This document shows, in pieces, positions 2,843 through 59,451 of a stretch of 64,000 bases of DNA. The position numbers and the translations under genes are program-made. Location of the stretch: positions 1 through 64,000 of the forward strand of contig NZ_MPPI01000015.1 in the NCBI RefSeq assembly GCF_001895925.1, given 5' to 3'. Position 1 is the stretch's first letter; every line of letters starts with the position of its first letter. Below the pieces are notes generated by a model that was not told the origin of the DNA, did not search any database, and was given only the letters and a program-made list of their open reading frames with translations. This DNA is from Phormidesmis priestleyi ULC007. Lineage in GTDB: Bacteria; Cyanobacteriota; Cyanobacteriia; Leptolyngbyales; Leptolyngbyaceae.

Positions 2843-2934
2843 GTAAAGTTTATTGAGAAGCTCTTTGGAATGAGTGCTTAACGGAACGCGAACGAAACAC
2901 TTCGTTTGTCACTAAAAAGTATTTGCGACACAAC
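2822..2934. repeat. Left copy of an IS630-type end (inverted repeat with 58194-58305)
   Basis: This 113-bp stretch is the 5' end of the decayed IS630-type element. It reappears as its reverse complement at 58194-58305 with roughly 90 percent identity by eye, including the internal GAACGAA/TTCGTTT palindrome and the GACAGGGTTTCTC block. The transposon terminus points toward the NRPS genes. A TTG that could extend NRPS1 upstream (2923) lies inside this repeat and is therefore an unlikely start. Confidence 0.85.
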
Positions 2935-2973
2935 CCCATTTCCCCTCTTACCCGACTAAAATATGAGATAAAA

Positions 2974-5900
2974 ATGTATAACCCCTTGCAACAAAATAGA
3001 GGGCAGCCATCGGTGCTAAATCTGATCAAGCAGCAACTTATGGTTATGACCCAGCAATTAGATTTGCTACAGCAAATCCAGCATTCATCTGGTTCAGCTA
3101 ATTGCAGTACTACCTCAACCGAGCGCCATACTGAGTCAAATCCAGGGGAGGAAGCCATTCATATTCCCCCTTCGCCAGGACAGCGCGACCTCTGGTTTTG
3201 GTCAAATCTAGGAGCAGATAAATCGTCTGCATACAATCAATCAGTGGTGATGCGATTGCGCGGTGAGTTGCAAATACCACTTCTAAAGGCAGCCATACAG
3301 ACTGTAGTGGCTCGACGGGACGCTTTGCGAATAATCAGTATCAGTTCAGAAGAGCAAATTATTGCAGCAACCCTACAAATTGAGATTCCTTGCCTAGTTC
3401 TGCCTGAAGCATCAGAGAATGTTAAACAACAACAAATTGATGCCTGGTTGGAGGCGGTAACGTCTCAGCCATTCAACTTTAAGGAAGGGCCATTTTTTCG
3501 GTTGCAGTTGGCACAGGTGAATCATCGGGATTATCTGATGGTGCTGGTGGCTCATCATTTAATTGCAGATGGATGGTCGATCGAAGTGATCCTGCAAGAA
3601 GTTGCTGAATTGTATTCAACTTTATGTGTGGGCAGACAGGCGGATAAACCAAAACCTGTACAGTATCAGAGTTATCTAGACTGGCTGCTAACGCTGCAGA
3701 CAAGCCAACAACTGGAGCAAGATCACGCCTATTGGTTAGAGGTTTGGAGTACTTCAATCCCAAAGCTCGTCTTACCCAGCGATTTCCTGAAACCCGCCAG
3801 AACTTACAACGGCGATCGTCAAACGCTGACGCTGAACAGTGCTGTTTATGAACAGCTAAAGCGGTTCAGTCAGACTCAGGGGACAACCGTGGTGATGACA
3901 CTTCTGGCTGCCTGGACGGTCTTTTTATCCCGGCTGACGGGACAGGAACAATTGGTTGTAGGTATTCCGACGGCGGGACAACTGCTAATGGGAGCCAGAG
4001 ATTTGGTGGGACACTGTAGTTCGCTGTTGCCGATCGTCAGCAACCCACGCTGGGATCTGGAATTTACTGAGTTTCTGGCATCTGTCAAAAAAACCTTGTT
4101 TGATGCCCACGAACACCAGCGCTACTTTTTCATCGACCGGCTCAGTCAGGTACACCCGCAGTCCGTCACTGCCCCTCAGGTGACAACCCTGTTTAATATT
4201 GACAAGATGATGGACATCCCAAAACTGCATGGGCTGGATGTAGCGTTAATGCCAAGCCCAGTCCATTTTGCAAAATTTGATCTCAGCTTGAACAGTATTC
4301 AGCATGACGATCAATTTGTTTTAGATTTTACCTACCGCACCGACTTATTTGATCCTCAAACTATCCGTCACTGGTGTCATGCTTTTCTCACATTGTTAGC
4401 AGGTATCCTGGCTTCTCCTGAAAGTCGATTATATCAACTGCCCTTGGTTTTACCTGAAGACCATCAAACGTTCTTTTCAGATGTTGATTCAGTGCAAGAT
4501 GTTGAGCCAATTCATCAGCAGTTTGAGCGCCAGGTGAGTCAGAACCCTGATGCGATCGCGGTTACAGTTGGGGATGAATCTATTTCCTATACAGTGTTAA
4601 ATTACCGAGCAAATCAACTAGCACGGTATCTAAAGGCTCAGGAAGCTGCACAATCACACGTTACAGTGTATCTGCAACATCCCATCCAACTCGCGATCGC
4701 AGTGTTGGCGCTATTCAAGGGTGGAATGAGTGTAACTTTGATTAATCCTGGGCTTAGTGCAGAGGCAATCCGGATGGCAACGGATGAATGGGTTGAGGGT
4801 TTGCTCTTGACCGAGGCATCATTGATCACGGCTTTAACCGAGGGCAAGTCACATTCAGGCACTCATTTAGTCGCTATTGATGATGATTGGTCAATAATTT
4901 CAACCCATAGTAGTGAAAATCTCCAGCCTATTAATTCAGAAGGTTATATTGACTTCTTGTACGCAACGGCATCTACTGAGATTGATCGCCTGCAACTGAG
5001 TTATCTTGCTGTTTGCCGTCACATTGCAGGTCTGCAAAAACTGCTTCCTCACACGAGCCGCGATCGCATCTCCATCTTCAACCAGTTTGAGAGAGAAGAT
5101 TTTGCCATTTTTGACTTTTTGTTATCGAGTTTGACAGTTGGCGCGTCTCTTAACGTCATCGCTTGGCAACAGATCTCTGATTCGGAAAACCTGGCTGCTT
5201 TTGCAGACAAAACCAGCACTATGATCGTGGCATCTTTGACAGACATGGTTGCATTGGCAAGGGCATTTTCAGTTAACCCAAAATTACTAATGGTAAGTAA
5301 GCCGCAGCAGTGGGTTATTTTTGACCAGGGCAAATTGGGATACGGATTAGTCAAGCAACTCTCTCAATGTCTGGATTGTCTGGGTCAACCTGTTGAGCTT
5401 TATTGGGTCTACAAACTTCCTGTCCTATCCTTAGTGGGGGCGGTCAAGCAACTGGTATCCCTCCCAGAGGAGCCGCAGGGCAACAGTCAAGCCGTTCCTC
5501 TAGGACATCCGATCGCTCAACTGGGGTTCTCCGTGCGCGATGCCTACGACCAAATTTTACCTGTAGGCATACCCGGGAAACTCTGTGTGGAATATCCCTC
5601 AGGGATGGCCATCCCAACAGGCGACAAGGCTCGTCTGCGCTTCGATCGCGGTATCGAAATTTGTGGCGATAAGGCGACCTCTCCCAGGGAAATTGAACTG
5701 ACCCTTAGTCTATGTTCTGGGGTCAAAGAGGTTGTTGTTAGAGAAAGTCAGCCTCAAGGTGCTGATGCCGCGATCGAATTTCGTGTATACGTAGTCCTGA
5801 CAAAAGCCGAGGGGCATGATCTTCAGAAAGTTGAGCAATTATTGAACAGCTTATTGTCTATCCCTGAGAGTTTTAGGTTGATTCAGGTGGAAACAATCCC

Positions 5901-7644
5901 ACGGACTGCGTCCGGAGTGGTTGACTATTCAGCCTTGAGCGAGATACCAGGAGTGTCATTAACAGGGGTCGATTTTGTCGCTCCTGGGAATTCCACAGAA
6001 AAGGCGATCGCTCACTATATCCAACAGACGCTGGGAAAACCGTTGGTTAGTGTAGATGACAATTTTTTTGATTTAGGTTTATCAAGTTTGCAAGGAACTC
6101 AACTGATCTCCAGAATCCAGGCAGAATTAGCGGTAGACATCAGTCTGCGCGATTTATTTGAAGCACCGAACATTGCGAGTTTGGCAACCCGAATTAAAGA
6201 TCGAACCACTCCACCGTTGCCGCTAATGCAGCCCCTACCAGAACCTGCTGATGCAGCAGGAATGCAGCCCCCCTTTCGAGATTATGACCTTTCCCCTGCC
6301 CAGCGCAGCCTCTGGCTTCATGCCCAACTGGACGAGAGTGAGATCGCCTATAACCTGTCTACGTCCTTACTGTTGGAGGGAGATTTAGAGATTACAGCTT
6401 TACAGCGATCGTTTCAGTCCATCGTCGCCCGCTATGAATCCTTGAGAACCACCTTTGTTCTGGTAGAGGAGGAACCCAGGCAACGGGTGCATGAGACGAT
6501 GCCTGTTCCCCAAACCGACCTTGACCTCTCGGAAGCTGAGAATTCCCTGGAACTCGCTGGCAAGTATGGCTGGGAGGAAGCTCAGAAACCCTTTGATCTG
6601 GCTCAGGGACCGCTCCTGCGAACCCTGTTACTCAAACTGTCCGATACCCGACACATTCTGTTATTTACCACTCATCACCTTATTATTGATGGCTGGTCGC
6701 TCGATATTCTGGGGCGGGAACTCTTTAACTACTATGCCACCTATCGATCGGGTCAGAACTACCAGCCCTCCCCTTTAAGCATCCAGTACAAAGACTATGC
6801 CGCTTGGCACAATGCTCTCCTGCAAACCGATCGCTTAGTCAAACAACGGGCTTACTGGCACAATAAACTCTTGGGATCGCAACCTGCACTCAATTTACCA
6901 ACGGATTTTCCTCGCCCATCCGTGCCCACATTCAAAGGCAGTGTGATGACTTTCACCTTCGATCCCGGACAAACCGCTGCCTTAAATCGCCTCAGTCGCA
7001 ACTATGGTGCCAGCCTATACATGCTCCTAGTCACGGCGGTCAAAACCCTACTGTATCGGATCACTCAACAGACGGATATAATTGTTGGCACGACCTTTGC
7101 CGATCGCCCTCATCCTGATTTAGAGGAGCAGATTGGCTGTTTCATCAATCCGCTGATTCTGCGGGATATAATTGCCGTTAATCAAAGCTTTGTGTCGCTT
7201 TTGCATCAGGTCAGGCAAACGATCCTGGAAGCGCTGGAGAACACTTTGTATCCCTTCGATCTGCTGGTTAACGAACTGCAACAGCGGGATCTCAGCTTAC
7301 AGGGATCGTCTCTGTTTGAAGTGCAAGTTGTAATGCACAACCATCCCCAAACGTATACCCAGGGAGATGGGCTGAAGGTGTCAATCGTTGAGAATATTGT
7401 ACTGGCTAGCCGATTTGATTTAATCTTCAACTTTATCGAAAACGATGACCAACTGCAACTGGATATTGAATACAAAACGGATTTGTGGAAGCTTGAACGG
7501 ATTGAGGTGATGAAAAACCGATTTTATGCCCTGGTCATAGATATCCTTGCCCATCCCCACCAGACACTGGATAATCTCAACATTCAGACTGCTTACGAAG
7601 AGTCAGCCGAAGAACCAGAACTGTTGTTTGATCTTGATTTTTAG
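2974..7644 (+). CDS. NRPS1: C-A(degenerate)-PCP-C
   Basis: This is a non-ribosomal peptide synthetase of about 1556 residues, counted from ATG 2974. An upstream TTG at 2923 lies in IS sequence. Order: a helical leader (about 10-30), condensation domain 1 with HHLIADG, an adenylation-like region (about 510-985), a PCP with the phosphopantetheine Ser in GLSSL (about 1037), then condensation domain 2 with HHLIIDG (about 1231). The adenylation region is badly degraded: the P-loop core YTSGSTGxPKG is replaced by LYATASTEIDR, NxYGPTE and YRTGDL are missing, and the A10 Lys motif is replaced by TASGVVD. It should not activate an amino acid. Both C domains and the PCP keep their key residues. The protein probably accepts the beta-amino acyl chain from the PKS-aminotransferase. 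It is 17 bp upstream of NRPS2, in the same operon. Confidence 0.9.
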   Translation: MYNPLQQNRGQPSVLNLIKQQLMVMTQQLDLLQQIQHSSGSANCSTTSTERHTESNPGEEAIHIPPSPGQRDLWFWSNLGADKSSAYNQSVVMRLRGELQIPLLKAAIQTVVARRDALRIISISSEEQIIAATLQIEIPCLVLPEASENVKQQQIDAWLEAVTSQPFNFKEGPFFRLQLAQVNHRDYLMVLVAHHLIADGWSIEVILQEVAELYSTLCVGRQADKPKPVQYQSYLDWLLTLQTSQQLEQDHAYWLEVWSTSIPKLVLPSDFLKPARTYNGDRQTLTLNSAVYEQLKRFSQTQGTTVVMTLLAAWTVFLSRLTGQEQLVVGIPTAGQLLMGARDLVGHCSSLLPIVSNPRWDLEFTEFLASVKKTLFDAHEHQRYFFIDRLSQVHPQSVTAPQVTTLFNIDKMMDIPKLHGLDVALMPSPVHFAKFDLSLNSIQHDDQFVLDFTYRTDLFDPQTIRHWCHAFLTLLAGILASPESRLYQLPLVLPEDHQTFFSDVDSVQDVEPIHQQFERQVSQNPDAIAVTVGDESISYTVLNYRANQLARYLKAQEAAQSHVTVYLQHPIQLAIAVLALFKGGMSVTLINPGLSAEAIRMATDEWVEGLLLTEASLITALTEGKSHSGTHLVAIDDDWSIISTHSSENLQPINSEGYIDFLYATASTEIDRLQLSYLAVCRHIAGLQKLLPHTSRDRISIFNQFEREDFAIFDFLLSSLTVGASLNVIAWQQISDSENLAAFADKTSTMIVASLTDMVALARAFSVNPKLLMVSKPQQWVIFDQGKLGYGLVKQLSQCLDCLGQPVELYWVYKLPVLSLVGAVKQLVSLPEEPQGNSQAVPLGHPIAQLGFSVRDAYDQILPVGIPGKLCVEYPSGMAIPTGDKARLRFDRGIEICGDKATSPREIELTLSLCSGVKEVVVRESQPQGADAAIEFRVYVVLTKAEGHDLQKVEQLLNSLLSIPESFRLIQVETIPRTASGVVDYSALSEIPGVSLTGVDFVAPGNSTEKAIAHYIQQTLGKPLVSVDDNFFDLGLSSLQGTQLISRIQAELAVDISLRDLFEAPNIASLATRIKDRTTPPLPLMQPLPEPADAAGMQPPFRDYDLSPAQRSLWLHAQLDESEIAYNLSTSLLLEGDLEITALQRSFQSIVARYESLRTTFVLVEEEPRQRVHETMPVPQTDLDLSEAENSLELAGKYGWEEAQKPFDLAQGPLLRTLLLKLSDTRHILLFTTHHLIIDGWSLDILGRELFNYYATYRSGQNYQPSPLSIQYKDYAAWHNALLQTDRLVKQRAYWHNKLLGSQPALNLPTDFPRPSVPTFKGSVMTFTFDPGQTAALNRLSRNYGASLYMLLVTAVKTLLYRITQQTDIIVGTTFADRPHPDLEEQIGCFINPLILRDIIAVNQSFVSLLHQVRQTILEALENTLYPFDLLVNELQQRDLSLQGSSLFEVQVVMHNHPQTYTQGDGLKVSIVENIVLASRFDLIFNFIENDDQLQLDIEYKTDLWKLERIEVMKNRFYALVIDILAHPHQTLDNLNIQTAYEESAEEPELLFDLDF

Positions 7645-7661: not shown

Positions 7662-10600
7662 ATGGACATGGATATTCGCAGGGTTATTTCCGAAGATTTT
7701 TGGATCGACCAATTAAGAGGATTTGAGCCGCACGGGTTTATCCCCCTGAACCGCCAGCAGGATATCTCAGGCTCTACCCAGTCACACGTATCATCCTTTC
7801 CCCAACCGATTCGCGATCGATTAAATGAGGTCACGAAAGGAATACCAACTAATGCTTATGTGTTAATGGCGGCAGCCGTCGCGATTCTCCTGTCCAGATA
7901 CATGAACACTCAGGATATCCTCATCGTTACGCCCAGGCTCCAAGTATCGCAAACAACCGGAAATCCTCACGCAGGCATCCTGTTTCTCAGACTTCCAGTG
8001 GTCAAAGACGGAACCATCCGAAATTTGCTCCAGATCATTCAGACTACCGTCACTCGTGCGCACAAACATCAAGACTATGACCTTGAGGCATTACTGCGGC
8101 GATTGGGTGCAGAGGGTCGCAATCCAGATGCTTTGTTCCAGGTTGGGTTTAGCTACTCGGCACTGAATCAAAATCATTCGTTTGACGACAAGTTAACCCT
8201 GCGATTTCAGATTGAGGAATCCCAGATTGGAGAATCCCAGAAGCAATACACTCTAGCGATCTCCTACAATGATGAAATTTTCAACGAGGCATTCATCAAC
8301 CAAATAGCTGCTCACCTGTTGCGAATTTTAGCGTGTGTTGTGTGGCATCCCGATCGGGCGATCTCAGCCGTCGAACTGTTATCTGAGGCGGAACGGAATA
8401 CACTCTTAGAAACCGTCAACGCCACTCAAACATCCTATCCTCAGCAAAAGCCAGTGATTGATTGGTTTGAGGAGCAAGTTGAGCGTAGCCCAGACGCAAT
8501 CGCCATTGTTTGTGAACAGTGCTCTCTGACCTATCGAGATTTAAACCAACAGGCTAATCAGGTCGCCGCTTATCTCCAAACTCAAGGAGTGGAGCCAGAA
8601 CATCGAGTTGGGTTACTCCTGACCCGCTCAGAGTATTTGATCATCGCCATCCTGGGGGTGTTGAAAGCTGGGGGCGCTTACCTGCCCATCGAACCGGAAT
8701 TTCCCCTGGAACGTATTCGCTATATGGTTGCCGATAGTGATTGCCGAATTATTTTGAGCGAAGCCAGTCAGCAGAATAAGTGGGCTGTGGGGGCAGTGCA
8801 AGTGACAGACATCCGGGAACTTCCCCTGGCACCTGCAACCCATCTCACCCGATCGGGCGATCCCCACCAATTAGCCTATCTGATGTATACCTCTGGCTCT
8901 ACGGGTTTACCGAAAGGAGTGGCGATCGAACACCGCAGCTTAATGAACTACCTTTACTGGGCCAGCGAATACTACTTTGAGCAAAACCCTGACCGCGGCA
9001 ATATGGCTTTGTTTACCTCACCCGCCTTTGACTTGACAGTAACGACCATCTTCCTGCCCCTCTTACGGGGAAAAAAGTTATATATCTATCCAGATAATTC
9101 ACCCGAAGTCGTTTTAGAAACTTGTTTTCGAGAGGATAGTGAAATCGATGCGATTAAGTTAACGCCTTCTCATATCCAAATCCTGAACTATATTCCAGTT
9201 ACCCCCAGCAATATCGAAGTGGTGATTGTGGGGGGTGAGGAATTAAAACCAACGCACATTCAGTTACTAAAAGAGCGCAACAACTCCATACGAATCTACA
9301 ACGAGTATGGCCCGACAGAAGCAACGGTAGGATGTACGATCGTGGAAGCTAATCCCGAAAAAATTACCATTGGCACCGCGATCGCCAATAGCCAAATCTA
9401 TATCTTAGATGAAGACTGTCAACTTCAGCCTCTGGGAGTAGCAGGGGAAATTTGCATTGGTGGAAATGGCTTGGCAAGAGGGTATTGGAACCGGGAAGAA
9501 CTGACACAAGAACGATTTATTGTCCATCCGTTTTATCCAGGAAAGCGAGTTTACCGGACTGGAGATTTAGGGCGGTGGTTGGACACGTTGGAGTTGGAAT
9601 ATCTGGGACGAAAAGACAGTCAGGTGAAAATCCGAGGCTATCGGATTGAATTGCAAGAAATTGAGCAGCAACTTTTAGCATTTAGCCAGATTCATGATGT
9701 TGCAGTGGTGACGAATGATTCCTCAACAGATCCGGAATTGATTGCTTATGTTGTAGGTTCAGGAGAACTGAATCTGGAGCAGGTGCGATGCCAGTTAAGT
9801 GAAAAATTACCTGCTTATATGATTCCCCAACAGATGATCCGTCTAGAGCGGTTGCCCCTAACCGCGAATGGTAAACTCGCTTGGCGATCGCTTCCCAAGC
9901 CTGAACAACTCAAGCCGTCTTCCACCCCGGACTATGTTGCACCCCGCGATCAACTGGAAGCGCAACTGGTAGAGATTGGAGCTGAAGTGCTCAAGCAAGA
10001 CAGAATCGGCATTAACGATAACTTACTTACCCTGGGAGCCAATAGTTTAAAGATCATTCAAATTGTCGCTCGCGTGCGTCATCGCTTAGGCGTGGATCTC
10101 AACTTAAAAGAAGTCTTTGCCAACCTCAGGATGAGAGAAATCGCTGAACTAGTGCGCGTCAAGCAACCACTGCAACTACCTCCCATTGAGCTAGTAACCC
10201 CCGCAGAACATTATGCTCTTTCTCAGTCTCAACGGCAGTTTTGGACATCAGCGCAGATAGGTGCGGCGATCGCCTACAATATCCCTGGGGCTGTCGTGTT
10301 AGAAGGTTCCCTGAATCGGCAAGCCCTGCTGAAAGCATTTCGTTCCTTGGTTGAACGGCATGAAGTCTTGCGAACGACGTTTATCTGCGTCGATGGTGAA
10401 CCCAGACAGTGGATTAGCCCGGATAGCAATTTTTGGTTAGAAGAGCGTAATTTGACTGGGGAGGCAGAACCATTCAAGAGCGCCCGATCGTGGATAGAGA
10501 AAGCAGCCACGCTACCGTTTGACCTGGAAAAAGAAACGCTGTTGCGCGTGTATCTGTGGCAATTAGCACCCATGCGGCATCTGTTGTTGATCAACACCCA

Positions 10601-11573
10601 CCACATTATTTTTGATGGTTGGTCTATTGGATTGCTGTTGCAAGAGTTGACTACGTTGTATGAAGCCTATCAAAATGGGCAAGACAATCCACTGCAACCT
10701 CTGGAATTTCAATATAAGGATTATGCAACTTGGCAGAATACCTTCTTGAATAGTCACCAGGCGCGGGTGCATCAAGCCTATTGGCAACAAAAGTTACAAG
10801 ACCTTCGCCCCTTAGATTTGCCTACCGACTATCCGAGATCGACCCTGCAAACGTTTCAAGGAGCCGTTATACCCTTGAACCTGTCTACCCAATTAGTCAA
10901 GATGCTGGAGGAATTTAGCAAGCAACACGAAGTCAGTCAGTTCGCGATCGTTCTAGCGGTGATCAAGGCGTTGCTGCATCGTTATACGAGCAAAGCAGAT
11001 ATTATTGTGGCCACCCCTGTTTCCGAGCGAACTCAAGCAGATTGGGAAACTCAAATTGGTCTTTATCTCAATACCGTTGTGTTGAGAGATCATGTTAGCG
11101 GACAAGACCGATTTGTCGATTTGCTGCAACGAGTAAAACAGACGGCTCTAGACGCTTTCATACACCAGATTTATCCCTTCAATAAATTGGTACAGGAGTT
11201 ACCGATTCAGCGAGATCTGAGCCACAATCCTGTGTTTGATGTTGGGTATACCTGGATGGATGAAATTGGTTCTCAGATCGAGCAAATCATCCTTTCTCAC
11301 ATCAAGGTTACCCAAATTCCTCTGGAGCATGAGCAAAAGACCGCCGTCACGGATTTATGGTTTTATTTTGAAAGCCGTGGTGATTGCATTGCAGGTTACT
11401 TGACCTACAATTGCAATTTGTTTCGGGAAGAAACAGCCCATTTTATCAACCAGGCATTGATTAAAATCCTGGAGCAAGTACTTAACAATCCAGAGCTAGA
11501 AATTAACGTACTGAACCTTGCAGATGAGGTCGAAATGACTAAAGCGCAAATCACTGTGGAGCTAAATTTATAG
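7662..11573 (+). CDS. NRPS2: half-C-A(Asn?)-PCP-C
   Basis: This 1303-residue NRPS starts with about 270 residues that match only the C-terminal lobe of a condensation domain and lack HHxxxDG. An intact adenylation domain follows (YTSGSTGLPKG near 408, YNEYGPTEATVG, YRTGDLG, LTANGKL), then a PCP (GANSL, Ser near 795) and a complete C domain (HHIIFDG near 977). Pocket residues read by eye give D-L-T-K-I-G-E-V-G-K, the pattern known for Asn. The ORF follows NRPS1 by 17 bp with a GGGAG-like ribosome binding site, so the two are co-transcribed. The complete C domain at the end should link this residue to the one on NRPS3. Substrate assignment is inference from the code. Confidence 0.9.
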   Translation: MDMDIRRVISEDFWIDQLRGFEPHGFIPLNRQQDISGSTQSHVSSFPQPIRDRLNEVTKGIPTNAYVLMAAAVAILLSRYMNTQDILIVTPRLQVSQTTGNPHAGILFLRLPVVKDGTIRNLLQIIQTTVTRAHKHQDYDLEALLRRLGAEGRNPDALFQVGFSYSALNQNHSFDDKLTLRFQIEESQIGESQKQYTLAISYNDEIFNEAFINQIAAHLLRILACVVWHPDRAISAVELLSEAERNTLLETVNATQTSYPQQKPVIDWFEEQVERSPDAIAIVCEQCSLTYRDLNQQANQVAAYLQTQGVEPEHRVGLLLTRSEYLIIAILGVLKAGGAYLPIEPEFPLERIRYMVADSDCRIILSEASQQNKWAVGAVQVTDIRELPLAPATHLTRSGDPHQLAYLMYTSGSTGLPKGVAIEHRSLMNYLYWASEYYFEQNPDRGNMALFTSPAFDLTVTTIFLPLLRGKKLYIYPDNSPEVVLETCFREDSEIDAIKLTPSHIQILNYIPVTPSNIEVVIVGGEELKPTHIQLLKERNNSIRIYNEYGPTEATVGCTIVEANPEKITIGTAIANSQIYILDEDCQLQPLGVAGEICIGGNGLARGYWNREELTQERFIVHPFYPGKRVYRTGDLGRWLDTLELEYLGRKDSQVKIRGYRIELQEIEQQLLAFSQIHDVAVVTNDSSTDPELIAYVVGSGELNLEQVRCQLSEKLPAYMIPQQMIRLERLPLTANGKLAWRSLPKPEQLKPSSTPDYVAPRDQLEAQLVEIGAEVLKQDRIGINDNLLTLGANSLKIIQIVARVRHRLGVDLNLKEVFANLRMREIAELVRVKQPLQLPPIELVTPAEHYALSQSQRQFWTSAQIGAAIAYNIPGAVVLEGSLNRQALLKAFRSLVERHEVLRTTFICVDGEPRQWISPDSNFWLEERNLTGEAEPFKSARSWIEKAATLPFDLEKETLLRVYLWQLAPMRHLLLINTHHIIFDGWSIGLLLQELTTLYEAYQNGQDNPLQPLEFQYKDYATWQNTFLNSHQARVHQAYWQQKLQDLRPLDLPTDYPRSTLQTFQGAVIPLNLSTQLVKMLEEFSKQHEVSQFAIVLAVIKALLHRYTSKADIIVATPVSERTQADWETQIGLYLNTVVLRDHVSGQDRFVDLLQRVKQTALDAFIHQIYPFNKLVQELPIQRDLSHNPVFDVGYTWMDEIGSQIEQIILSHIKVTQIPLEHEQKTAVTDLWFYFESRGDCIAGYLTYNCNLFREETAHFINQALIKILEQVLNNPELEINVLNLADEVEMTKAQITVELNL

Positions 11574-14338: not shown

Positions 14339-17300
14339 TTAATTCTGGAGAGTCTGCTCCAGAATTTCATTCATCACGTGGGCGTTATGGTATAAGTATT
14401 CATTGACGAGCATATCCCCGTGATTGCCCAAGCCCTCGTAAACCGATACCTTCCCTGTAGTGATGTTAACCCAGCTATCCAGGTTATTGGAGATTGGCTG
14501 ATTCTCTTGCGAACAAATCAAATGAATATTGGCTGCTATTTGTCCATTATTGATGACATGATTTGAGTAGCGCAGGTAAGCCGTCATTTTCGTCCTGAGT
14601 TTCTCTTTGAAGTGTGGGTTGTTGAACAACTGGTTTAAATCTTTGTCTTCTTGAACAAACGTAGAGTAGTAGCCGATTTCTGCATCAACTTGCTCTTGAA
14701 TCATCGCCTCGCTGTCATTGCGTTGGCAAAATCGGGGCACGGAATCCAACATAATGATGTCTGAAACGTGACGATCGCGTTGCTCTAATCCTTTTGCTAA
14801 TTCAAAAGCCAAATTACCGCCGCCACAATACCCCAATAAGACGTAGGAACCCTCCGGTTGCGCCTTTTCCAGCAATTCTATGTAGCGGGCGACAGGATTG
14901 TTGTCTTCAATAAAGTCTAAGCCGTAGACTGAGTGAAACTTAAGCTGTTGAGCCAGTCCCTTAAACGCGATTCCATAACCCAACACAGTGGGTAAAGCAA
15001 AGAGGGGTTTCTCGCGTTCGGTACTGAGCAAGATCATCTGTTCTTTGCCAATAATGATATTCTGATCAGGCCCGATCGTGGCGATATAGCTACCGAGATA
15101 GTTACCGAGGGTGCGAATTGTGGAAAATTCAAAGACAGACTTGAGGGCGATTTCGATGCCCAGAGATTTGCGAATTCGGGAAAGCAGCGTCAATGCCTTT
15201 AAACTGTGACCGCCAAGCACAAAGAAATCATCGTCCACCCCTATACTTTTAACACCCAGTAAATCCTGCCAAATCTCAGCTAAAACTTTTTCTACACGGC
15301 TCCTGGGCAGTTCATAGGCTTGATTTTGCTTCCCAGTGAGTCCTGCTTGTTGCAACAGAGCTTTGCGGTCAAGTTTGCCGTTATGAGTTAAGGGGAACTG
15401 ATCTACTAATTGGAAATCACTTGGAATTAGGTATTGTGGTAGTTGGTCGTCAAGAAAAGCCCGAATACTCTTGACTAACGTTTCCACCTGTCCCCACTGC
15501 TCCGCTGCTTTCTCCTGCTGAGATTGGGTAGCCGTGTTGGACATTTGGCTTTGGACTCTATGTCCATAGATTTTATAAAGGTTGGTGCCTTTGAGGAGGT
15601 TGTCTTGGGCAACCTGAACTTGAAATCCGTATCTGGCTAAACGGGCTTTAACGTGTTCTAACCGCCCGTCGATGTCGTGAACTTCCACAATCAGTTGCTT
15701 AATTTTTTGCCAGTCCTCTGCATCAATACCATCCAGAACATCTAGTTCACTTTTTTCAACATCAATCTTCAACAGATCGACGTGACTGATATCTAACTCT
15801 CGCAGAACTGAGGATAGCCGTCTGAGATGAACAGTTTGGGAAAGAGATCGCATGCTGTCATCCAGTTCCTCTTCGGTTGAGAGTACTCCATTTGACCCTT
15901 TGACTTTCTCGTTGTTCAGGATAAATGATGACACGATTGTTCGATCGTCCTCAGTATCCCCATATCGACCTGACATCACAGTATTCGTGGGGTAATACGT
16001 AAACGTTTGCTGAGTTTCTTCACAGGAGAGGCTAAAGGGATAGCAATGAATCTTTTCACCATAAAGGATAGAGTTTTTACTCAAGGTTGCATAGACTGGA
16101 GGAATCGGTTCAAAAGCGTAAATTTGTGCTTCGGGATACTGCTGATGGATTAACAGTGAAAACATACCAATGTTGGCTCCCACATCGAAAACAATGTCAC
16201 CATTGCTAACGGTAATTCCATGTGCCAGGTAATTCTCTTCCTCAAAGATCTCCTGATATAGGTAATCGATTTCTTTCCGATTCATGCCAAACATCTGTAA
16301 GCCATTGGGCAACGAGTGTAACTGATTTTGAAGATTGGGATCCTCTGCGATCAGCCTAACTAACCGTCGTAGCAGGGGTGCCCGTCCAGAATCAGGGATG
16401 AGATAAGCCTTTAATTCCTGCTCCTGGTCTGGGAGTTCACGGGTCGCCACAACCGCCTCTTCAACGCCGGGGTGCTGCTTGAGCAAACCCTCCACTTCAC
16501 CCAACTCTACGCGGTGTCCTCTAATTTTCACCTGATCGTCTTTTCGACCCAGGTAGATCATTGTTCCAGTTTCCAACCATTTGCCCAAATCTCCTGAGCG
16601 GTAAAGCTTACTGGTTGGCTCTAGGGGATGTGCAATAAATTTTGCTGCACTCAAGGCAGGGTTTGTCCAATAACCATCGGCTAAACAGGAACCCGCAATA
16701 TAAATTTCACCCACACAGCCAATCGGGACAGGCTGAAGATGACTATTGAGAATGTAGACTCTGGTATTGTCTATGGGTTGACCGATCGTGATGTGATCTG
16801 GTTCTGTTACTCGATCGACAATACATCCGACAGTTGCTTCTGCTGGGCCATATTCGTTATAGATTTCCATATTCGGATTGAGAGCCAGTAATGTTTCGAC
16901 TTGCTCTTTTTTCAACTCCTCGCCACCCACAATGGCTAATTGAATCGCAGTTTGCTTTGCTTCTAATTGTTTTAAGGCTGAAATATGAGCGGGTGTCAGT
17001 TTGATAGTATCGATTTGGTTTTCCAGGTCGATAATCTGTCTGAGGGTTTGGTCAATTTCTTCTCTGTCCACTACTACGACTGTCTTGCCGAGAACCAAAG
17101 GACAGAAGAGACTGGTGATCGTTAGATCGAAAGCCGGAGAGGTAAACAGGGGCATGGTTCCCAAATTTCGCCCCCGGAAGTAGAAATTGGCACACCACTG
17201 AATGTAGTTAAAGAGACTGGAATGATTGACTGCGATGCCTTTTGGGTTGCCAGTTGAACCCGATGTAAAGATGATATAAGCCAGGTCGGCCGGGGATGGC

Positions 17301-19132
17301 AAATGGTTTGTTGAAAGTGGTTCAAGCAGATCTAGATTTTCGATGACAACCACGGTGCCAGAAAAGTTTTTCAGTTCGGTACTGAATCTCTCATCGACGA
17401 TCGCGACTTTGCTCCCAGATTCGCTGATCATTGCCAGATTTCGTTCTATGGGGGCTTTCGGATCCAGGGCCATAAATCCGCATCCCGCTTTGATCACAGC
17501 CAGTACCGCAATCACGAATTGTTCGGACGGCGAAAGCAGAATTGCGATCGGTTCACCGGGTTGCACCTGGGTTTGTGTCATCAGGTAAGCTGCGATTTTG
17601 TCAGCGGTGATACCCAGTTCCCGATAGCTGAGTTTTTTGTCAGCAAACTGTACGGCTATTGCATCTGGAGTGTGATTGGTCTGTTGTTCAATCAAGTCAA
17701 CGATGGTTTTTTCTGGCTCACGAACCGTTTTAGTCGCATTAAATTCTGATAGTAGCAGGTGGCTTTCGCGATCGCTCAGGAGTTGAATATCAGCGATCGC
17801 AATTTCCGGGAATTGCAGCACCGCTTTGATGATATTGCTCAGATGGCTCTCAAGGCGTTGGAGATAAGCCGGACTAAAAACGTTTGCATTGTATAAAAAC
17901 CGGAATTGGAGTTGATTTCCTGGAGTTACAACTACCGAGAAGTCATAATTGCTTTGTTCTACAACCTGAACTTTTTCAATTGTAAATCCATAATGAGTCG
18001 TTTCTAATGCTTCACGTACGCGATCGTGGGCAGGATAGTTTTGAAAGACAATCAGATGGTCAATCAGGCTCGACCGATGCTCACTCAATGCCTGGATATC
18101 TGCTAATGAATAATAGCTGTGTTCCATGCTGGCGATCGCATCGTTTTGAATCTGCTCCATTAATTGAGCAAATGTTAATTGCGATGTCAAACGAACCCGC
18201 ACCGGAACCGTATTGATGAACAAACCAAGCATCTGCTCAATGCCCCTAATTTCAGGAGGGCGACCCGATATTGTAGAGCCAAAAATAACGTCATCAGCAT
18301 CATGATAGTGGGCTAACAAGACTGCCCACATACTTTGAACTAGACTGTTCAGAGTAACCTGATATTGACGAGCCAACTGCTCTAACTGGCTGGTCGATTG
18401 TTCGTCTAGCGTAAAAGTAAATGTAGATAATTGATACCCCGTTGCTGCAAACTGACTTCTTGGCATCCTCACTGGATCGGTATACCCCTGCAAATACTGC
18501 TTCCAGTACTGCTGTGCCGCCTCGGTATTTTGCTGTTTTAACCAGCGAATAAAGTCGCTATAAGGTGGGGCACTACCAGGATTTGGACGCTTACCATCAA
18601 CGAGTGCCTTATAGGTGTCAATGAGTTGTCCTAGCATCAGACCAGAAGACCACCCATCTAAAAGAATGTGATGATACGTCCAGACGATTTCATAAGCATC
18701 GGGGTGCGTCTGAAAAACCGCAACCCGCATCAGTAAATCTCGATCTAACTTAAATCCTGTTTTTCGGTCTTTCTGTTGATAGGTTTTCAAAAAATCTTCT
18801 TGTTGTTTCCCTGTCAGATGCTGAATATCTTCATAGTGAAAAATTATCTGGCATTCCCTTAAAACCATTTGTAAGGGTTGGGACGCTTTTTGAGGAATTA
18901 GAATAGTTCTAAAAATGTCATTTTGTTTAAACAGCTCGTTCCAACTTTTCTCAAACAGATCAATATGAAAATCACCCGTAATTGAACAGAAAATCTGCTC
19001 TAGAAAAGTACCCAGACTTTCGTCGTAGAGCGAATGAAACAGCATTCCCGCTTGCATGGGAGTCAATGGATACAAATCCTTTAAATTTTCCTTACCTGTG
19101 CTGACACTTTGAACTTTACCTTGATTATTCAT
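14339..19132 (-). CDS. NRPS6: C-A(Asn?)-FkbM methyltransferase-PCP-TE (termination)
   Basis: This terminal NRPS has about 1597 residues from the ATG at 19132. The frame opens at 19162, but 19132 has a GAGG ribosome site inside the end of NRPS5. Order: a C domain of the kind that accepts D-residues (N-terminal LKDLYPLTPMQAGMLF, HHILLDG near 155), an A domain (FTSGSTGNPKG near 625, YNEYGPAEATVG), an inserted FkbM-type methyltransferase (about 975-1190; VFDVGANIGMFS, YAFEPIPP, LLKIDVEKSE), the A10 motif (LTHNGKLD), a PCP (GGHSL, near 1306) and a thioesterase with GYCGGG (nucleophile position near 1437) and GNHGD. Pocket residues read D-L-T-K-I-G-E-V-G-K, an Asn pattern, so a methylated Asn is the likely last residue. 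The TE has Cys where Ser is usual. It should release, and probably cyclise, the peptide. Confidence 0.9.
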   Translation of the reverse strand: MNNQGKVQSVSTGKENLKDLYPLTPMQAGMLFHSLYDESLGTFLEQIFCSITGDFHIDLFEKSWNELFKQNDIFRTILIPQKASQPLQMVLRECQIIFHYEDIQHLTGKQQEDFLKTYQQKDRKTGFKLDRDLLMRVAVFQTHPDAYEIVWTYHHILLDGWSSGLMLGQLIDTYKALVDGKRPNPGSAPPYSDFIRWLKQQNTEAAQQYWKQYLQGYTDPVRMPRSQFAATGYQLSTFTFTLDEQSTSQLEQLARQYQVTLNSLVQSMWAVLLAHYHDADDVIFGSTISGRPPEIRGIEQMLGLFINTVPVRVRLTSQLTFAQLMEQIQNDAIASMEHSYYSLADIQALSEHRSSLIDHLIVFQNYPAHDRVREALETTHYGFTIEKVQVVEQSNYDFSVVVTPGNQLQFRFLYNANVFSPAYLQRLESHLSNIIKAVLQFPEIAIADIQLLSDRESHLLLSEFNATKTVREPEKTIVDLIEQQTNHTPDAIAVQFADKKLSYRELGITADKIAAYLMTQTQVQPGEPIAILLSPSEQFVIAVLAVIKAGCGFMALDPKAPIERNLAMISESGSKVAIVDERFSTELKNFSGTVVVIENLDLLEPLSTNHLPSPADLAYIIFTSGSTGNPKGIAVNHSSLFNYIQWCANFYFRGRNLGTMPLFTSPAFDLTITSLFCPLVLGKTVVVVDREEIDQTLRQIIDLENQIDTIKLTPAHISALKQLEAKQTAIQLAIVGGEELKKEQVETLLALNPNMEIYNEYGPAEATVGCIVDRVTEPDHITIGQPIDNTRVYILNSHLQPVPIGCVGEIYIAGSCLADGYWTNPALSAAKFIAHPLEPTSKLYRSGDLGKWLETGTMIYLGRKDDQVKIRGHRVELGEVEGLLKQHPGVEEAVVATRELPDQEQELKAYLIPDSGRAPLLRRLVRLIAEDPNLQNQLHSLPNGLQMFGMNRKEIDYLYQEIFEEENYLAHGITVSNGDIVFDVGANIGMFSLLIHQQYPEAQIYAFEPIPPVYATLSKNSILYGEKIHCYPFSLSCEETQQTFTYYPTNTVMSGRYGDTEDDRTIVSSFILNNEKVKGSNGVLSTEEELDDSMRSLSQTVHLRRLSSVLRELDISHVDLLKIDVEKSELDVLDGIDAEDWQKIKQLIVEVHDIDGRLEHVKARLARYGFQVQVAQDNLLKGTNLYKIYGHRVQSQMSNTATQSQQEKAAEQWGQVETLVKSIRAFLDDQLPQYLIPSDFQLVDQFPLTHNGKLDRKALLQQAGLTGKQNQAYELPRSRVEKVLAEIWQDLLGVKSIGVDDDFFVLGGHSLKALTLLSRIRKSLGIEIALKSVFEFSTIRTLGNYLGSYIATIGPDQNIIIGKEQMILLSTEREKPLFALPTVLGYGIAFKGLAQQLKFHSVYGLDFIEDNNPVARYIELLEKAQPEGSYVLLGYCGGGNLAFELAKGLEQRDRHVSDIIMLDSVPRFCQRNDSEAMIQEQVDAEIGYYSTFVQEDKDLNQLFNNPHFKEKLRTKMTAYLRYSNHVINNGQIAANIHLICSQENQPISNNLDSWVNITTGKVSVYEGLGNHGDMLVNEYLYHNAHVMNEILEQTLQN

Positions 19133-19136
19133 CTCA

Positions 19137-22100
19137 TTATTCCTCGGTAAAAATTTCCTCAAACTCTTCCAAACTTAAATTGTCGTAGGTTAAATCAGCA
19201 GGGGTGAGTTCGATCGTCTGTTGCTGCTGACAATGCTCAACGATCTCTTTCAACGCCTGCTCGTAATTCTCTAAAAGTCTTTGAATAGTCTGCAAATGAA
19301 ATCGGTCAGTACTGAAAGTAACTGAAAATCTCAGTTTCCCTTCATGAACAAATCCCGAAAATTCCAATTCGTGTGTTCGTGCAGATTCGGGATCAATCAA
19401 ATTACCGCATGGCTCTTCCGCCAAATCAAATCGACTGAAGCGAATATCTTCGTCGATACGCCCCAAATAGTTGAACAAAATGGCAGATTGTTGATCAATC
19501 CAAGCATTTCGTTCTTGCTCGTTTAGTATTAAGTAGCACCAGATCCCATAACCGATCCCTTTGTGAGGAATTTGTCGCAGCATTTCTTTAATGGACTTGA
19601 TTTGGTATCCCAAATCGCTAGTAGAACCTAAATCGAGCAAGACAGGGTAAATACTGGTAAACCAGCCTACAGTCCGGCAGACATCTACCCCATCAATATC
19701 ATCTACTCGTCCATGTCCCTCCAAATCAATCAAAAAGCTCCGATATCCACACCACCTATGGAGGGCGTGAGCCAGAGCAGTCAGTAAGATGTCATTAATT
19801 TCGGTATTATAAGGACGGTGAACTTTCTTCAGTAGGGAGTCTGTTTCCTCTGGAGTTAAAGCAAAGTCCAGGGTGCAACTATCCCGAACTAGATTTTCCC
19901 CTTCAGGAACATCGATTGTAAAAGTATCCACCACTGTGTTGGTCAGGTGCTGCCAATACTCTACTTCTTGTTGTAATAGTTGACTGGTGCTATATTCTTG
20001 CAGCGTCATTGACCATCGCTGATAAGAGTCAGTTTTAGCAGGAAATCTGATTTCCGAACCCGCACACGCTTGATCATACCCCTGGGCTAGATCCTCCAGT
20101 AAAATCCGCCAGGAGACCCCATCTATCACTAAATGGTGAGCAGCCATTAACAGTCTGTCTCCTTGATCCAGATGGAAGAGCATAAACCTGATCAAAGGAC
20201 CGTGATCTAGATCCATGCTAGATTGAACTCGATCGGCTTCTGTCTCTAGCCGATGGATGGCATCCACTTGCCCTACTAAATCAATAACTTCTAAATCAAA
20301 ACAATGCTCAACGTCTGCACACTCCTGGACGATCGCCTCATCGATCGTCCTGAATCGCAACCGGAGTGCATCATGATGGCACTGAATCTGTCGAACAACG
20401 CAGCGTAGGGCATCCACATTCCATCGCTCCGCAGTGGCGAGCATAATAGACTGATTAAAATGATGTTTCTTACCGGGGTAAGTTGAGAGAAATCTGAGTT
20501 GAATTGGGGTTAGGGGTACAATCCCTAATACGATTCTCTGGTCAGCTTGATTTTCGTGCAAAACCGCTTGTTGCACGAGTTCGGCGATGGTTGGGAACTG
20601 AAACAGGTGTCTTTCTTTGATTCTCAGGTTGTGTTGGGCTAAACGGGATACTACCTGGATTGCCTTGATGGAATCTCCACCCAACTCAAAAAAGTTGTCG
20701 TAAATACCGACCTCCGTCAACCCCAATGCTTGAGCCCAGATGGCGGCTAAAATCTTTTCTGTAGAAGTAGAGGGTAGAACAAAGCGAGTTGCTGAATTGA
20801 TGGATGCCTGGGGTGCTGGCAGGGCGCGGCGATCACATTTTCCGTTAGCAGTCAGGGGCAGAGCTGCCAACTGCACAAAGGCACTAGGCACCATGTAATC
20901 GGGTAGTTTCTCCTTCAGGAAGCGACTCACTTCCCGGGTGTCGATTGATTCTGTGCTGGCAACAATATAGGCTACCAAGCGCTTGTCACCGGGTTGATCT
21001 TCTCGGAGGATCACCACAGCTTCCCGGATTTGGGGATCTTGTCTCAGCACCGCCTCAATTTCTCCCAATTCGATCCGGAACCCCCTCAACTTCACCTGGT
21101 GATCCATCCGACCGAGAAATTCAATCGTGCCGTCACTGAGGTAGCGGGCTAAATCACCCGTTTTATAGAGGCGGCTTCCCGGTTCTGGGCTAAAAGGATG
21201 GGGAATGAATTTCTCAGCCGTCAAATCCGGGCGGTTGAGATACCCCCTGGCTAAACCAACACCGCCGATGTGCAGTTCACCTGGAATACCGATCGGCACA
21301 GATTGGAGATAGTGATCGAGAATGTAAAGTTGGATATTACTAATCGGATAGCCCAACGATACAATTGGCTGCACACTGTCCCGTTGACATTGCCAGAAGG
21401 TCACGTCGATCGCAGCTTCTGTGGGACCGTAAAGATTATGCAGTTCGCAACTCAAATGGGCAAAGAAACGCTCTTGAAGTTGAAAAGGAAGCGATTCGCC
21501 ACTGCAAAAAACTCGTTTTAAGCAATGACAAGCATTCAGCCCTGACACTCCCAGAAAAGCTTGCAGCATGGAGGGAACGAAGTGCAAGGTCGTGATCTGC
21601 TGCTCCTGGATTAGCTGTAGCAGATAAGCACTGTCTTTGTGTCCTTCGGGTTTGCATAACACCAAACACGCCCCGGTCAACAACGGCCAAAATAGCTCCC
21701 AGACCGACACGTCGAAACTGTAGGGAGTTTTCTGGAGAACGCGATCGTGGGAGGCTAATGGGTAAGTTTCCTGCATCCAGAGCAAGCGGTTGCAAATCCC
21801 ACGGTGGGTATTCATGACTCCTTTCGGTCTACCCGTAGAGCCAGAGGTAAAAATGACATAGATGAGGTTGTCTAATTGCACCCCAGAGGTCGGATTCGCC
21901 TGCGAGAGTTGGGCTAACTCCCGCCACACTTGCTCCACACACACCACCGACCCGGACTGAGATGGGAGCTTCACAGCCAGCGTGGAGTCCGTCAACAACA
22001 CCGCTATCGGGGTGTCCTCCAGCATCACTGCCAACCGCTCTGCTGGGTAAGCCGGGTCTAACGGGACATAAGCGCCCCCTGCCTTGAGCACGCCCAGCAC

Positions 22101-23744: not shown

Positions 23745-23814
23745 GAAAACCTCTCCTGGGTGTTCCCGTGATCATCATTGCAGCATGGATCGAATTTTTC
23801 TCTCTATTAACCCC

Positions 23815-27057: not shown

Positions 27058-27120
27058 CTCAAAACCTCCAGAAGACCACCATCGCTGTACCCCATTAGAA
27101 CCGGATAGTTGACATTGAAC

Positions 27121-35618: not shown

Positions 35619-36389
35619 ATGGCACCGACCTTTGACTCCTGGGTAAAATATCTCAAACCCAATCCCCAAGCCAGCCTGCGCCTGTTCTGCTTTACCTTTG
35701 CAGGGGGTTGGTCTGCTACATTTCGCACCTGGCCAGATGGCTTACCAGAATATGTCGAGACGTGTGCTATTGAACTGCCTGGACGCGGAACTCGATTAAA
35801 GGAGATCCCATTAACCAGTTTTCCACTGCTCGTTGAGGCGATTGCGCTAGTTCTTCCGCCTCATCTAGACAAACCGTTCGCCTTCTTCGGTCACAGTATG
35901 GGTGGGCTAATCTGTTTCGAGGTGGCCCGTTTCCTCAACAAACATTACGATCGGGAACCCGTTCACCTGTTCGCTTCCGGTTGTCGATCGCCGCAACTGC
36001 CCGCCCTTAAACCGCCTATCCATACGTTGCCAGAAGCCGCATTTTTGGAGGAACTACGTAACCTCAATGGGACTCCCCAGGTGGTTTTGGAGAACGCCGA
36101 ATTGAGGCAACTATTGTTGCCTGTCTTGCGTGCTGATTTTGCTGTCTTTGAAACCTATACTTACACTACCGATTCACCCCTTAACTGTTCCATTACGGCT
36201 CTGGGTGGTTTACACGATCCGGAAGTCAGCGCCGAACAGATGACAGGCTGGCGAGAACAAACTACCGCGTCCTTCTCCCTGCATCTGCTTCCCGGTGATC
36301 ACTTTTTCCTGCAATCAGCCCAGCCCCTCCTGCTCCAAATCATCTCTCAAAAGCTGCACCAGTTAACGTCGGTACAGAGTTTCAGGTAA
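35619..36389 (+). CDS. Type II thioesterase
   Basis: The 256-residue alpha/beta hydrolase opens with LRLFCFTFAGG, has ELPGRGTRL, the nucleophile motif GHSMGG and the catalytic-His motif GDHFF. This is the pattern of the stand-alone thioesterases (GrsT/RifR type) that clear mis-loaded or stalled acyl groups from carrier proteins. It follows mbtH by 9 bp. Its 3' end overlaps the converging PKS-aminotransferase gene by 27 bp, so the two operons run into each other without room for a terminator. Given the degenerate A domain of NRPS1 and the damaged AT of PKS1, an editing enzyme could matter in this pathway; that is inference. Confidence 0.93.
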   Translation: MAPTFDSWVKYLKPNPQASLRLFCFTFAGGWSATFRTWPDGLPEYVETCAIELPGRGTRLKEIPLTSFPLLVEAIALVLPPHLDKPFAFFGHSMGGLICFEVARFLNKHYDREPVHLFASGCRSPQLPALKPPIHTLPEAAFLEELRNLNGTPQVVLENAELRQLLLPVLRADFAVFETYTYTTDSPLNCSITALGGLHDPEVSAEQMTGWREQTTASFSLHLLPGDHFFLQSAQPLLLQIISQKLHQLTSVQSFR

Positions 36390-39300
36390 AAATCCTCCTT
36401 TTTGCAGTTCCTCTACGCTATTCTTGACAGCCTGAATCAAATACTCAATATCTGCATCGGTATGTGCAGTTGACAGAAAACAGTTACGCCCTTCCCAGAT
36501 GTAAACCCCGTTGAACAGCAGGTGATAAAACAGCAAATCCAGATTACCTGAAAATGAAAAGCGAAACAGGGAGCCAAAATGGATGATACGGATGGGGACA
36601 TTTTCAGTTTTAAAGTAAGTATTCAACGTTTCCGCGAACTGTGACGTGCGCTGATTTAACTGCTGCGTCAGGCGATCGCCTTGTTGTTTAAGCTGCTGCA
36701 GCACCGCCCTGGCAGCGTTCATTGTGATATGGTTTTTGTTGAAGGTTCCGGCGAAAAATGTCTTCTCTGCCTGGGGGTAGGAAGCGTCTCCATACTGCCA
36801 CACCCCCCCGTCGATCGCATTCATGTAGAGAGCCTTGCCTGCAACAACCCCGATCGGCATTCCACCTCCGACAATTTTGCCGTAAATGGTAATGTCTGCT
36901 GCAACCCCAAACCAGGCTTGTGCCCCGCCCGGATGGATGCGGAAGCCTGTAAGAACTTCATCAAAGATCAGCGCTATTCCTGTGCTCTGTGTTAATTGCC
37001 TTAATTGCTGTAGAAAGGCTTTGGGTTGTAAATCGGGGCGGCGACTTTGCACGGGTTCAACCAGCACTGCGGCTAGTTCGTGTGCGTGGGCCTGCAAAAT
37101 ATCCAGGGATCTGGGATTGTCGTAATCCAGGACTAGAACGTCTTTAACGGCTTGCGGCGATACTCCTGGCACCATTGGTACAGTATTGATCCCGGCAGTA
37201 TTGATCCCAGCATTCGATGCTGTCGCCAAAACGCCGTCAAAATGCCCGTGATAAGAATTCGCGAATAGAGCAATCTTGTTGCGACCCGTCACGGTGCGTG
37301 CCAGACGGAGGGCTAACATTACGGCTTCTGTTCCGGTGTTGCAGAATGCCGCCCGTTCCATACCCGTCAATTCGCAAATTAGCTGGGCTACTTCTCCGGC
37401 CAGATTTGACTGTGGCCCAATTTGTATCCCGTGTTTGATTTGCTGTTCTATAGATGCAGTAATAAAGGGTGGGTTGTGACCAAACAGCAGCACACCAAAT
37501 CCCATTGTGATGTCAACATACTCGTTGCCATCCACATCCCAAAATTTGCAGCCCTGCGCTCGCTCCCCAATGATCGGATAAAGCATTTCTTTGATCGAAG
37601 GCCGAAAACCTGCTACCGATCGACTGTCCGCTAAAACCTGACGATAGGCTTGCGATCGCTGTTTTGATGTTTGAGTACGATGAGTATATTTAACGATGAG
37701 TGAATCTAAGTGCTGCTGTTGTTGTGGATTGAGACTTTTAGGTTGCGTTTCTGGCTTGAAATGAGGGGTCGATAAATGAGCGGTGGAGTCTGAGGGGCGA
37801 TCGCTGAATGGCAAAAATCCATTCTTGGATACTGGCTCCTTCTCGGTTATGAAACTGTTTCCAGAGAGAAGCTGTAACTGTTGAGACATCAATTCAATCT
37901 GCTGCTGAATCACCAGTCTTATGTCATCAGGAGTGACTTCTAATTCTCCAGAAACCTGGACATCAAGCATTCCTGGCTTTGTCGGTATAGTCGTTGCGTT
38001 CCGTGCGACTGGCTGGGCAGACTGGAATTGAGATTGGTGGAGTTGAGGTTGAAGTGAATTTGTCGCCGCCCAAGTTGGAGGTAAATGTTGGTCAATGTGG
38101 GTTGCCAAAGCATCAATGGTTGTCAACTGTTCAAATAGTTGGCGAATCGCAATTTTAATGCCAAATATCTGTTCGATCGTTTGTACAGCATCCATGAGAA
38201 CAATCGAATCTGCACCCATTTCCAGAAACGCCGCATGAGGTTCTACTTCCGATGGCTGAGATCGCAGTAGTTCTGCAATCGTGGACTGTAAGATCGCCAG
38301 AATTCGGTCTTTTTGAGTCATGCTGGGATGTTCAGTGATCTGAGGCTCTGGTCTATTTTCGCCTGATGGTTGTTCATTGAGTTCATTGCTCTGCTTCATA
38401 GCTGCATTTGTGTTTTCAAACCAATAACGTTGGCGCTGAAAGGGATAGGTGGGAAGTGACAGCCAATGTCTGGAGTAGCCGCGATCGAATTCAGGCCAGT
38501 TAACACCGATCCCCCGGACATATAAAGCAGATAAGCTCTCTAATAAGACTCGCCAATCCTCTTGTCCCGGCGCTAAAGAGGGCAACCAGATTGCTGGAAC
38601 ATCTTGTTGGCAACCTTTGCCTAAACTTGACAGGATCGGTTTCGGGCCAATTTCTACAAATAGTTCACAGCCTTGCTGAAACATTGTGTGGATTCCTGCC
38701 GTAAATCTCACGGCAGATCGCGAGTGATGTCGCCAATATTGGCTACCTGGTGGTTGTTCAGGCGACATCATCTGACCCGTTAAGTTGGAAATCAGCGGGA
38801 TGGCTGGAGCATGAAACGTGATTTGACTCGCAGCTTGTTCAAGGTCGTCCAAAATGGGTTGCATGGCGGGGGAATGGAACGCATGAGAGACATTTAAGGC
38901 TCGCGTTGCCACTCCCCTGGACTGCAAGCTCGCCTGCACCCTCTCCAGCGCGGGTCGCGCTCCCGAAATCACCACATGAGCGGGCCCGTTAATTGCGGCG
39001 ATCCCTAATCCAGACTGGTCGGGCATCAGCTCCTCGACCACGGCAAGCGGCGCAAACACCGCCATCATTCCCCCCGTCTGCGGCAGCGATTGCATTAACC
39101 GCGCCCGCGTCGCCACCAACTTCAGGGACTCTGCCAGCGTGAACACCCCCGCCACCGTGGCTGCCACATACTCCCCTAAACTGTGCCCCATCACCACATC
39201 CGGTACAATGCCCCAAGAGCGCCACAATTGGCAGAGGGCATACTCTAAAGCAAACAAGGCGGGTTGCGTATAAGCCGTTTGGTCAATCGGCGAGGACGCT

Positions 39301-41162: not shown

Positions 41163-41173
41163 GTTCACCTCGT

Positions 41174-58305: not shown

Positions 58306-59451
<1,146 letters not shown>

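What the first reader, a model, noticed from the sequence alone, without database searches (positions are those of the whole stretch)
4501..5985. Degenerate adenylation domain in NRPS1 between functional C and PCP domains
The A region keeps its length but has lost nearly all core motifs: A3 reads LYATASTEIDR, A5 and A7 are unrecognisable, and the A10 Lys is lost (TASGVVD). The frame is intact and both C domains and the PCP Ser are preserved, so the domain has been kept as a scaffold, not simply pseudogenised. The PCP may be charged in trans (for example by the Asn-type A domain of NRPS2) or the module may be skipped.
Basis: partly seen in the sequence, partly recalled or inferred. Interest (0 to 1): 0.8.

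Follow-up and report, generated by a model that had tools for sequence, protein, structure and literature searches.

The report
Dead adenylation domain in lipopeptide synthetase
A cyanobacterial enzyme that should choose and load one amino acid during assembly of a lipopeptide has lost its loading site while the rest of its module stays intact, so the amino acid is probably loaded by a neighbouring enzyme, a trick already known from a few other peptide assembly lines.

Summary
NRPS1 (2923-7644, +) is C-A*-PCP-C, and its adenylation (A) domain is catalytically dead by sequence. A3, A5, A6, A8 and the A10 lysine are lost, A6 and A8 by deletions. Pfam AMP-binding matches only its first third, and AMP-binding_C not at all. 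Among 67 compared A domains it has the longest branch and keeps 45% of conserved positions (others 71% or more). Two corrections: the domain is about 30 residues shorter than normal, and a TGD remnant of A7 survives. Both C domains and the PCP serine are intact, and the frame is open. I found no degenerate orthologue in the cyanobacterial genomes and plasmids searched. Most likely the PCP is loaded across proteins by another A domain of the cluster; NRPS2 (Asn-type code, next gene) is the best candidate. This was not tested. Such modules are established: cystobactamid CysK module 3, albicidin, fungal SidD, bleomycin BlmIII. New observation: the AT of the first PKS (49998-50786, -) also looks dead, through a 59-codon in-frame deletion, so two loading domains of one pathway are lost while condensing domains and carriers remain. 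That fits loading in trans, but decay of the pathway is not excluded.

The parts
2923..7644 (+). NRPS1, C-A*-PCP-C, 1573 aa (TTG start; ATG at 2974 also possible)
   Evidence: ORF, Pfam, starts
3157..4467 (+). First condensation domain C1, HHLIADGWS at 3553-3579; nearest compared relatives are C domains at PKS-NRPS junctions
4468..5988 (+). Degenerate adenylation domain A* (residues 516-1022)
4957..4989 (+). A3 remnant LYATASTEIDR
5401..5427 (+). A5 remnant YWVYKLPVL
5614..5640 (+). A7 remnant PTGDKARLR (TGD kept)
5905..5925 (+). A10 remnant TASGVVD, Lys replaced by Val
6004..6207 (+). Peptidyl carrier protein, Ser in DLGLSSLQ (6070-6093)
6259..7596 (+). Second condensation domain C2, HHLIIDGWS at 6673-6699
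7662..11573 (+). NRPS2: half C, intact A (Asn-like code read by hand), PCP, C; candidate supplier for the NRPS1 PCP
36363..41168 (-). PKS3 KS-AT-ACP-aminotransferase; predicted donor of the beta-amino acyl chain to C1
   Evidence: order inferred
49998..50786 (-). AT domain of PKS1 with a 59-codon in-frame internal deletion (junction within 50352-50399); His region of the active site lost
53927..56071 (-). Fatty acyl-AMP ligase with carrier domain, predicted start of the assembly line
14339..19162 (-). Terminal NRPS C-A-FkbM methyltransferase-PCP-TE

Best explanation
NRPS1 is a working elongation module at the PKS-to-NRPS junction of a FAAL-PKS-NRPS lipopeptide line. Its A domain lost ATP and substrate binding long ago and remains as a folded spacer and platform. 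Its PCP is aminoacylated by an A domain on another protein, most likely the Asn-type A domain of NRPS2. C1 then joins the beta-amino acyl chain from PKS3 to that amino acid, and C2 passes the product to the amino acid on the PCP of NRPS2. Shown here by sequence: loss of the motifs, intact C1, PCP and C2, intact NRPS2 A domain. Inferred: protein order, the loading partner, the residue (Asn), and that the domain still folds.
For: Dead A motifs. Intact C1, PCP Ser and C2. Lost motifs are concentrated in A3-A8 while A1-A2 and the PCP are better kept. The A* branch is about twice that of C1 and C2 with no stop over 505 codons, which neutral drift would not be expected to allow (inference). NRPS2 and N27 begin with a half C domain lacking HHxxxDG, so they need an upstream terminal C such as C2. 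The A domains that follow the nearest junction C domains in other genomes are intact. Experimental precedents: CysK module 3 lacks the A10 Lys, does not load Asn itself and is loaded in trans (PMC7966384); in SidD, A1 loads both T1 and T2 (PMC10192304).
Against: No stand-alone A-PCP gene was seen among the AMP-binding loci of the genome that were read, and the type II thioesterase has Ser (GHSMGG), not the Cys that I recall for SyrC/CmaE-type shuttles. No orthologue was found to show conservation of the degenerate state. A second dead domain (PKS1 AT) also fits a decaying pathway. No product is known.
Confidence: 0.55

Rival explanations
1. The module is skipped: no amino acid is loaded on the NRPS1 PCP, and the beta-amino acyl chain is handed through the PCP (or past it) to C2 and the Asn of NRPS2.
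For: A* is dead; NRPS2 with its own A domain and PCP could accept the chain directly.
Against: C1, PCP and C2 are all intact; a skipped module would be expected to lose at least C1 or the PCP Ser.
Confidence: 0.2
2. The pathway is decaying: A* and the PKS1 AT are inactive remnants and no full product is made.
For: Two loading domains are dead in one cluster; transposase genes lie at both edges.
Against: All large ORFs are open and the other core motifs checked are intact; A* diverged far without a stop, so the protein was maintained long after the loss (inference).
Confidence: 0.2
3. A* still adenylates something in an unusual way.
For: The TGD of A7 and the overall predicted fold remain.
Against: P-loop A3, A5, A8 and the A10 Lys are lost together, with deletions at A6 and A8.
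Confidence: 0.05

Closest known systems
Cystobactamid CysK module 3 (PMC7966384)
   Same: A domain present but inactive, A10 Lys missing; PCP and C used; loaded in trans with an Asn-derived unit
   Different: Loaded from stand-alone CysH through shuttle CysB; no such pair was found here; A* has lost far more than A10
Albicidin inactive A domain complemented in trans (review PMC8949500)
   Same: Low conservation of core motifs in an A domain within a PKS-NRPS line; proposed complementation in trans by an Asn-activating enzyme
   Different: A stand-alone A-T module with an extra domain supplies it; not found here
SidD module 2 and degenerate A domains of fungal siderophore synthetases (PMC10192304, PMC2644324)
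   Same: Degenerate A in a module whose carrier is loaded by another A domain of the same system
   Different: In SidD the N-terminal about 290 residues are missing; here the N-terminal part is the best kept. Fungal, single protein
Bleomycin BlmIII/BlmIV (Du 2003, title in the reference list of PMC10127204)
   Different: Cyclisation and oxidase domains, Cys substrate (from my own knowledge)
Puwainaphycin, laxaphycin and related cyanobacterial lipopeptide lines (PMC4219810, PMC7524897)
   Same: Fatty acyl ligase start and PKS with aminotransferase giving a beta-amino fatty acid, then NRPS modules (abstracts and own knowledge)
   Different: Not compared gene by gene; whether they hold a dead A domain at this position was not checked

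Membership tests
NRPS adenylation domain (PF00501/PF13193), as a descendant | End-to-end homology to NRPS A domains | tested here: met
   BLAST alignments of about 24-29% identity over most of the domain to intact A domains; AMP-binding above cut-off for the first third only
NRPS adenylation domain, as a working enzyme | Core motifs A3, A5, A8 and A10 Lys | tested here: not met
Degenerate-A module loaded in trans (CysK M3, albicidin, SidD type) | Dead A domain between intact C and PCP with active Ser | tested here: met
Degenerate-A module loaded in trans (CysK M3, albicidin, SidD type) | A candidate loading A domain in the same cluster | tested here: met
   Intact A domains in NRPS2, N27, N23, N19, N14; which one acts is unknown
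Degenerate-A module loaded in trans (CysK M3, albicidin, SidD type) | Demonstrated aminoacylation of the PCP by another A domain | not testable with these tools
   Needs biochemistry
Stand-alone A-T plus shuttle system (CysH/CysB, SyrB1/SyrC) | Stand-alone A-T gene in the genome | tested here: inconclusive
   AMP-binding search of the own genome shows no A-PCP didomain in the loci read; the assembly is a draft and the window starts at a contig end
Stand-alone A-T plus shuttle system (CysH/CysB, SyrB1/SyrC) | Shuttle acyltransferase with a Cys nucleophile | tested here: inconclusive
   The cluster thioesterase has GHSMGG (Ser); the Cys criterion is from memory, and the rest of the genome was not searched

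The most novel reading that the evidence does not exclude
One assembly line in which two different substrate-loading domains, the AT of the first PKS module and the A of the first NRPS module, are both dead and both carriers are loaded from elsewhere, with the dead A domain kept as a platform for an A domain of the next protein.
Probability: 0.35. Interest if true: 0.5.

Novelty: new member of a known kind. Interest (0 to 1): 0.38.

Why it matters
Prediction of products from genome sequence assumes one residue per module with its own A domain. A module with a dead A domain but intact C and PCP breaks this rule, and this cluster offers a compact case to test how a neighbouring A domain finds a foreign carrier. 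If the PKS1 AT is also bypassed, the same line would show two bypassed loading steps.

Tried and rejected
Search for orthologues of A*: own genome, 58 relatives, 388 genomes of the class (with whole NRPS1), 42 of the order, 386 of the phylum, plasmids and a scan of genome contigs. The best long matches are at about 25-30% identity; those whose motifs were checked are intact-type A domains. Searches of this sensitivity and sampling do not prove absence. The best plasmid hit by score (Gloeocapsopsis dulcis) has intact motifs. A sister cluster through NRPS2 was not found; best matches about 40% identity. Base composition of A* is close to that of C1 and NRPS2, so no sign of an inserted foreign piece. 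Stand-alone suppliers: an acyl-CoA-ligase-like protein and an A-PCP-reductase elsewhere in the genome were read and not adopted. The structure model was built on an alignment with intact A domains and the closest matches are whole C-A structures, so its A-like fold is not independent proof. No paper on a degenerate A domain in a cyanobacterial cluster was found with the searches made; the library is partial.

Full report
What was claimed.

What is there. NRPS1 is one open frame of 1573 codons, 2923-7644. Pfam gives C, a partial AMP-binding match (first 129 of 384 profile positions), PCP and C, and no AMP-binding_C. The six other NRPS A domains of the cluster match AMP-binding over essentially its whole length, single domains at about 220-315 bits. 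Aligned with these six, A* has lost A3, A5, the whole A6 stretch, most of A8 and the A10 lysine. The TGD of A7 remains, and A1-A2 are recognisable. In an alignment of 67 A domains, A* keeps 52% of conserved columns in A1-A2, 25% in A3-A5, 36% in A5-A8 and 50% in A8-A10; its PCP keeps 74%. Over all conserved columns it keeps 45%, the others at least 71% with a mean of 87%. Its terminal branch is the longest of the set (1.66, median 0.33). C1 and C2 have branches of 0.75 and 0.81 and keep 61% and 79% of their own conserved columns. So the loss is strongest in the A domain.

Is it maintained? The frame is open through A*, PCP and C2. With such divergence, neutral drift would be expected to have produced stops (inference, no simulation made). 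Hydropathy at positions where A* has changed still follows the family in A1-A5 (r 0.43, 0.57, 0.30) but not significantly in A5-A10 (r 0.11, 0.11). This suggests that the N-terminal core is still constrained and the rest less so. AlphaFold2 with 25 sequences gives a model of mean pLDDT 79 with an A-like fold, matching C-A structures such as LgrA, Txo2 and McyB; the alignment contained intact A domains, so this is weak support.

Context. The window lies at the start of a 91 kb contig (lengths). On the minus strand: FAAL-carrier, P450, three PKS proteins (the last with an aminotransferase), a CmlA-type diiron hydroxylase, and NRPS proteins N27, N23, N19 (with an epimerisation-type domain, motif HHLVIDGVSW) and N14 (FkbM methyltransferase, TE). 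On the plus strand: NRPS1, NRPS2 and an ABC transporter. NRPS2 and N27 start with only the C-terminal half of a C domain, and NRPS1 and NRPS2 end in a full C domain, which suggests the order PKS3 - NRPS1 - NRPS2 - N27 - N23 - N19 - N14 (inference). C1 is nearest, among the C domains compared, to C domains of two other genomes that follow a PKS or an aminotransferase, and these are followed by A domains with intact motifs. Substrate codes read by hand and compared with codes known to me: NRPS2 Asn, N27 Tyr then Gly, N23 Asn-like, N19 Ser, N14 Asn. These are predictions only.

A second dead loading domain. The AT of PKS1 lacks 59 codons in frame compared with the ATs of PKS2 and PKS3; the deletion removes part of the core of the domain and the histidine that I assign as catalytic from general knowledge of the family, while the Ser (GQSVGE) remains. 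The Pfam match is split in two. Two stand-alone ATs exist elsewhere in the genome and could load malonyl in trans.

Mechanism. Because C1, PCP and C2 are all intact, an amino acid is probably loaded on the NRPS1 PCP by another A domain. NRPS2 is the best candidate by position and by being the next protein in the inferred line; other in-cluster A domains are possible. Skipping and pathway decay remain open; the second dead domain fits decay as well as loading in trans.

Known kinds. Degenerate A domains whose module is supplied by another A domain are established: CysK module 3 was shown by mass spectrometry not to load Asn and to be supplied in trans (PMC7966384); SidD A1 loads the carrier of the degenerate module 2 (PMC10192304); albicidin (PMC8949500) and fungal sib1 and fso1 (PMC2644324) are further cases. 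The present case is a new member of this kind in a cyanobacterial lipopeptide-type cluster.

Noticed in passing
49998-50786 (-): AT of PKS1 has a 59-codon in-frame deletion relative to the PKS2 and PKS3 ATs; the catalytic His region is lost.
   Followed up: partly
7662-8396 (+) and 32269-33003 (-): NRPS2 and N27 both begin with only the C-terminal half of a condensation domain, without HHxxxDG, directly before A.
   Followed up: no
38535-39455 and 45215-46111 (-): The AT domains of PKS2 and PKS3 are nearly identical in DNA over most of their first 600-700 bases, which looks like recent gene conversion.
   Followed up: partly
A domains of N19, N23, N27 module 2 (19137-33003, -): The A5-A9 stretch is nearly identical between these A domains, suggesting recent exchange of A subdomains.
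   Followed up: no
13454-14008 (-): 184-aa protein with an internal duplication (two KSIFES.TFWGA units) and no Pfam family above cut-off, between the ABC transporter and N14.
   Followed up: no
973-1934 and 58483-59451 (+): IS630-like and IS110-like transposase genes flank the cluster.
   Followed up: no
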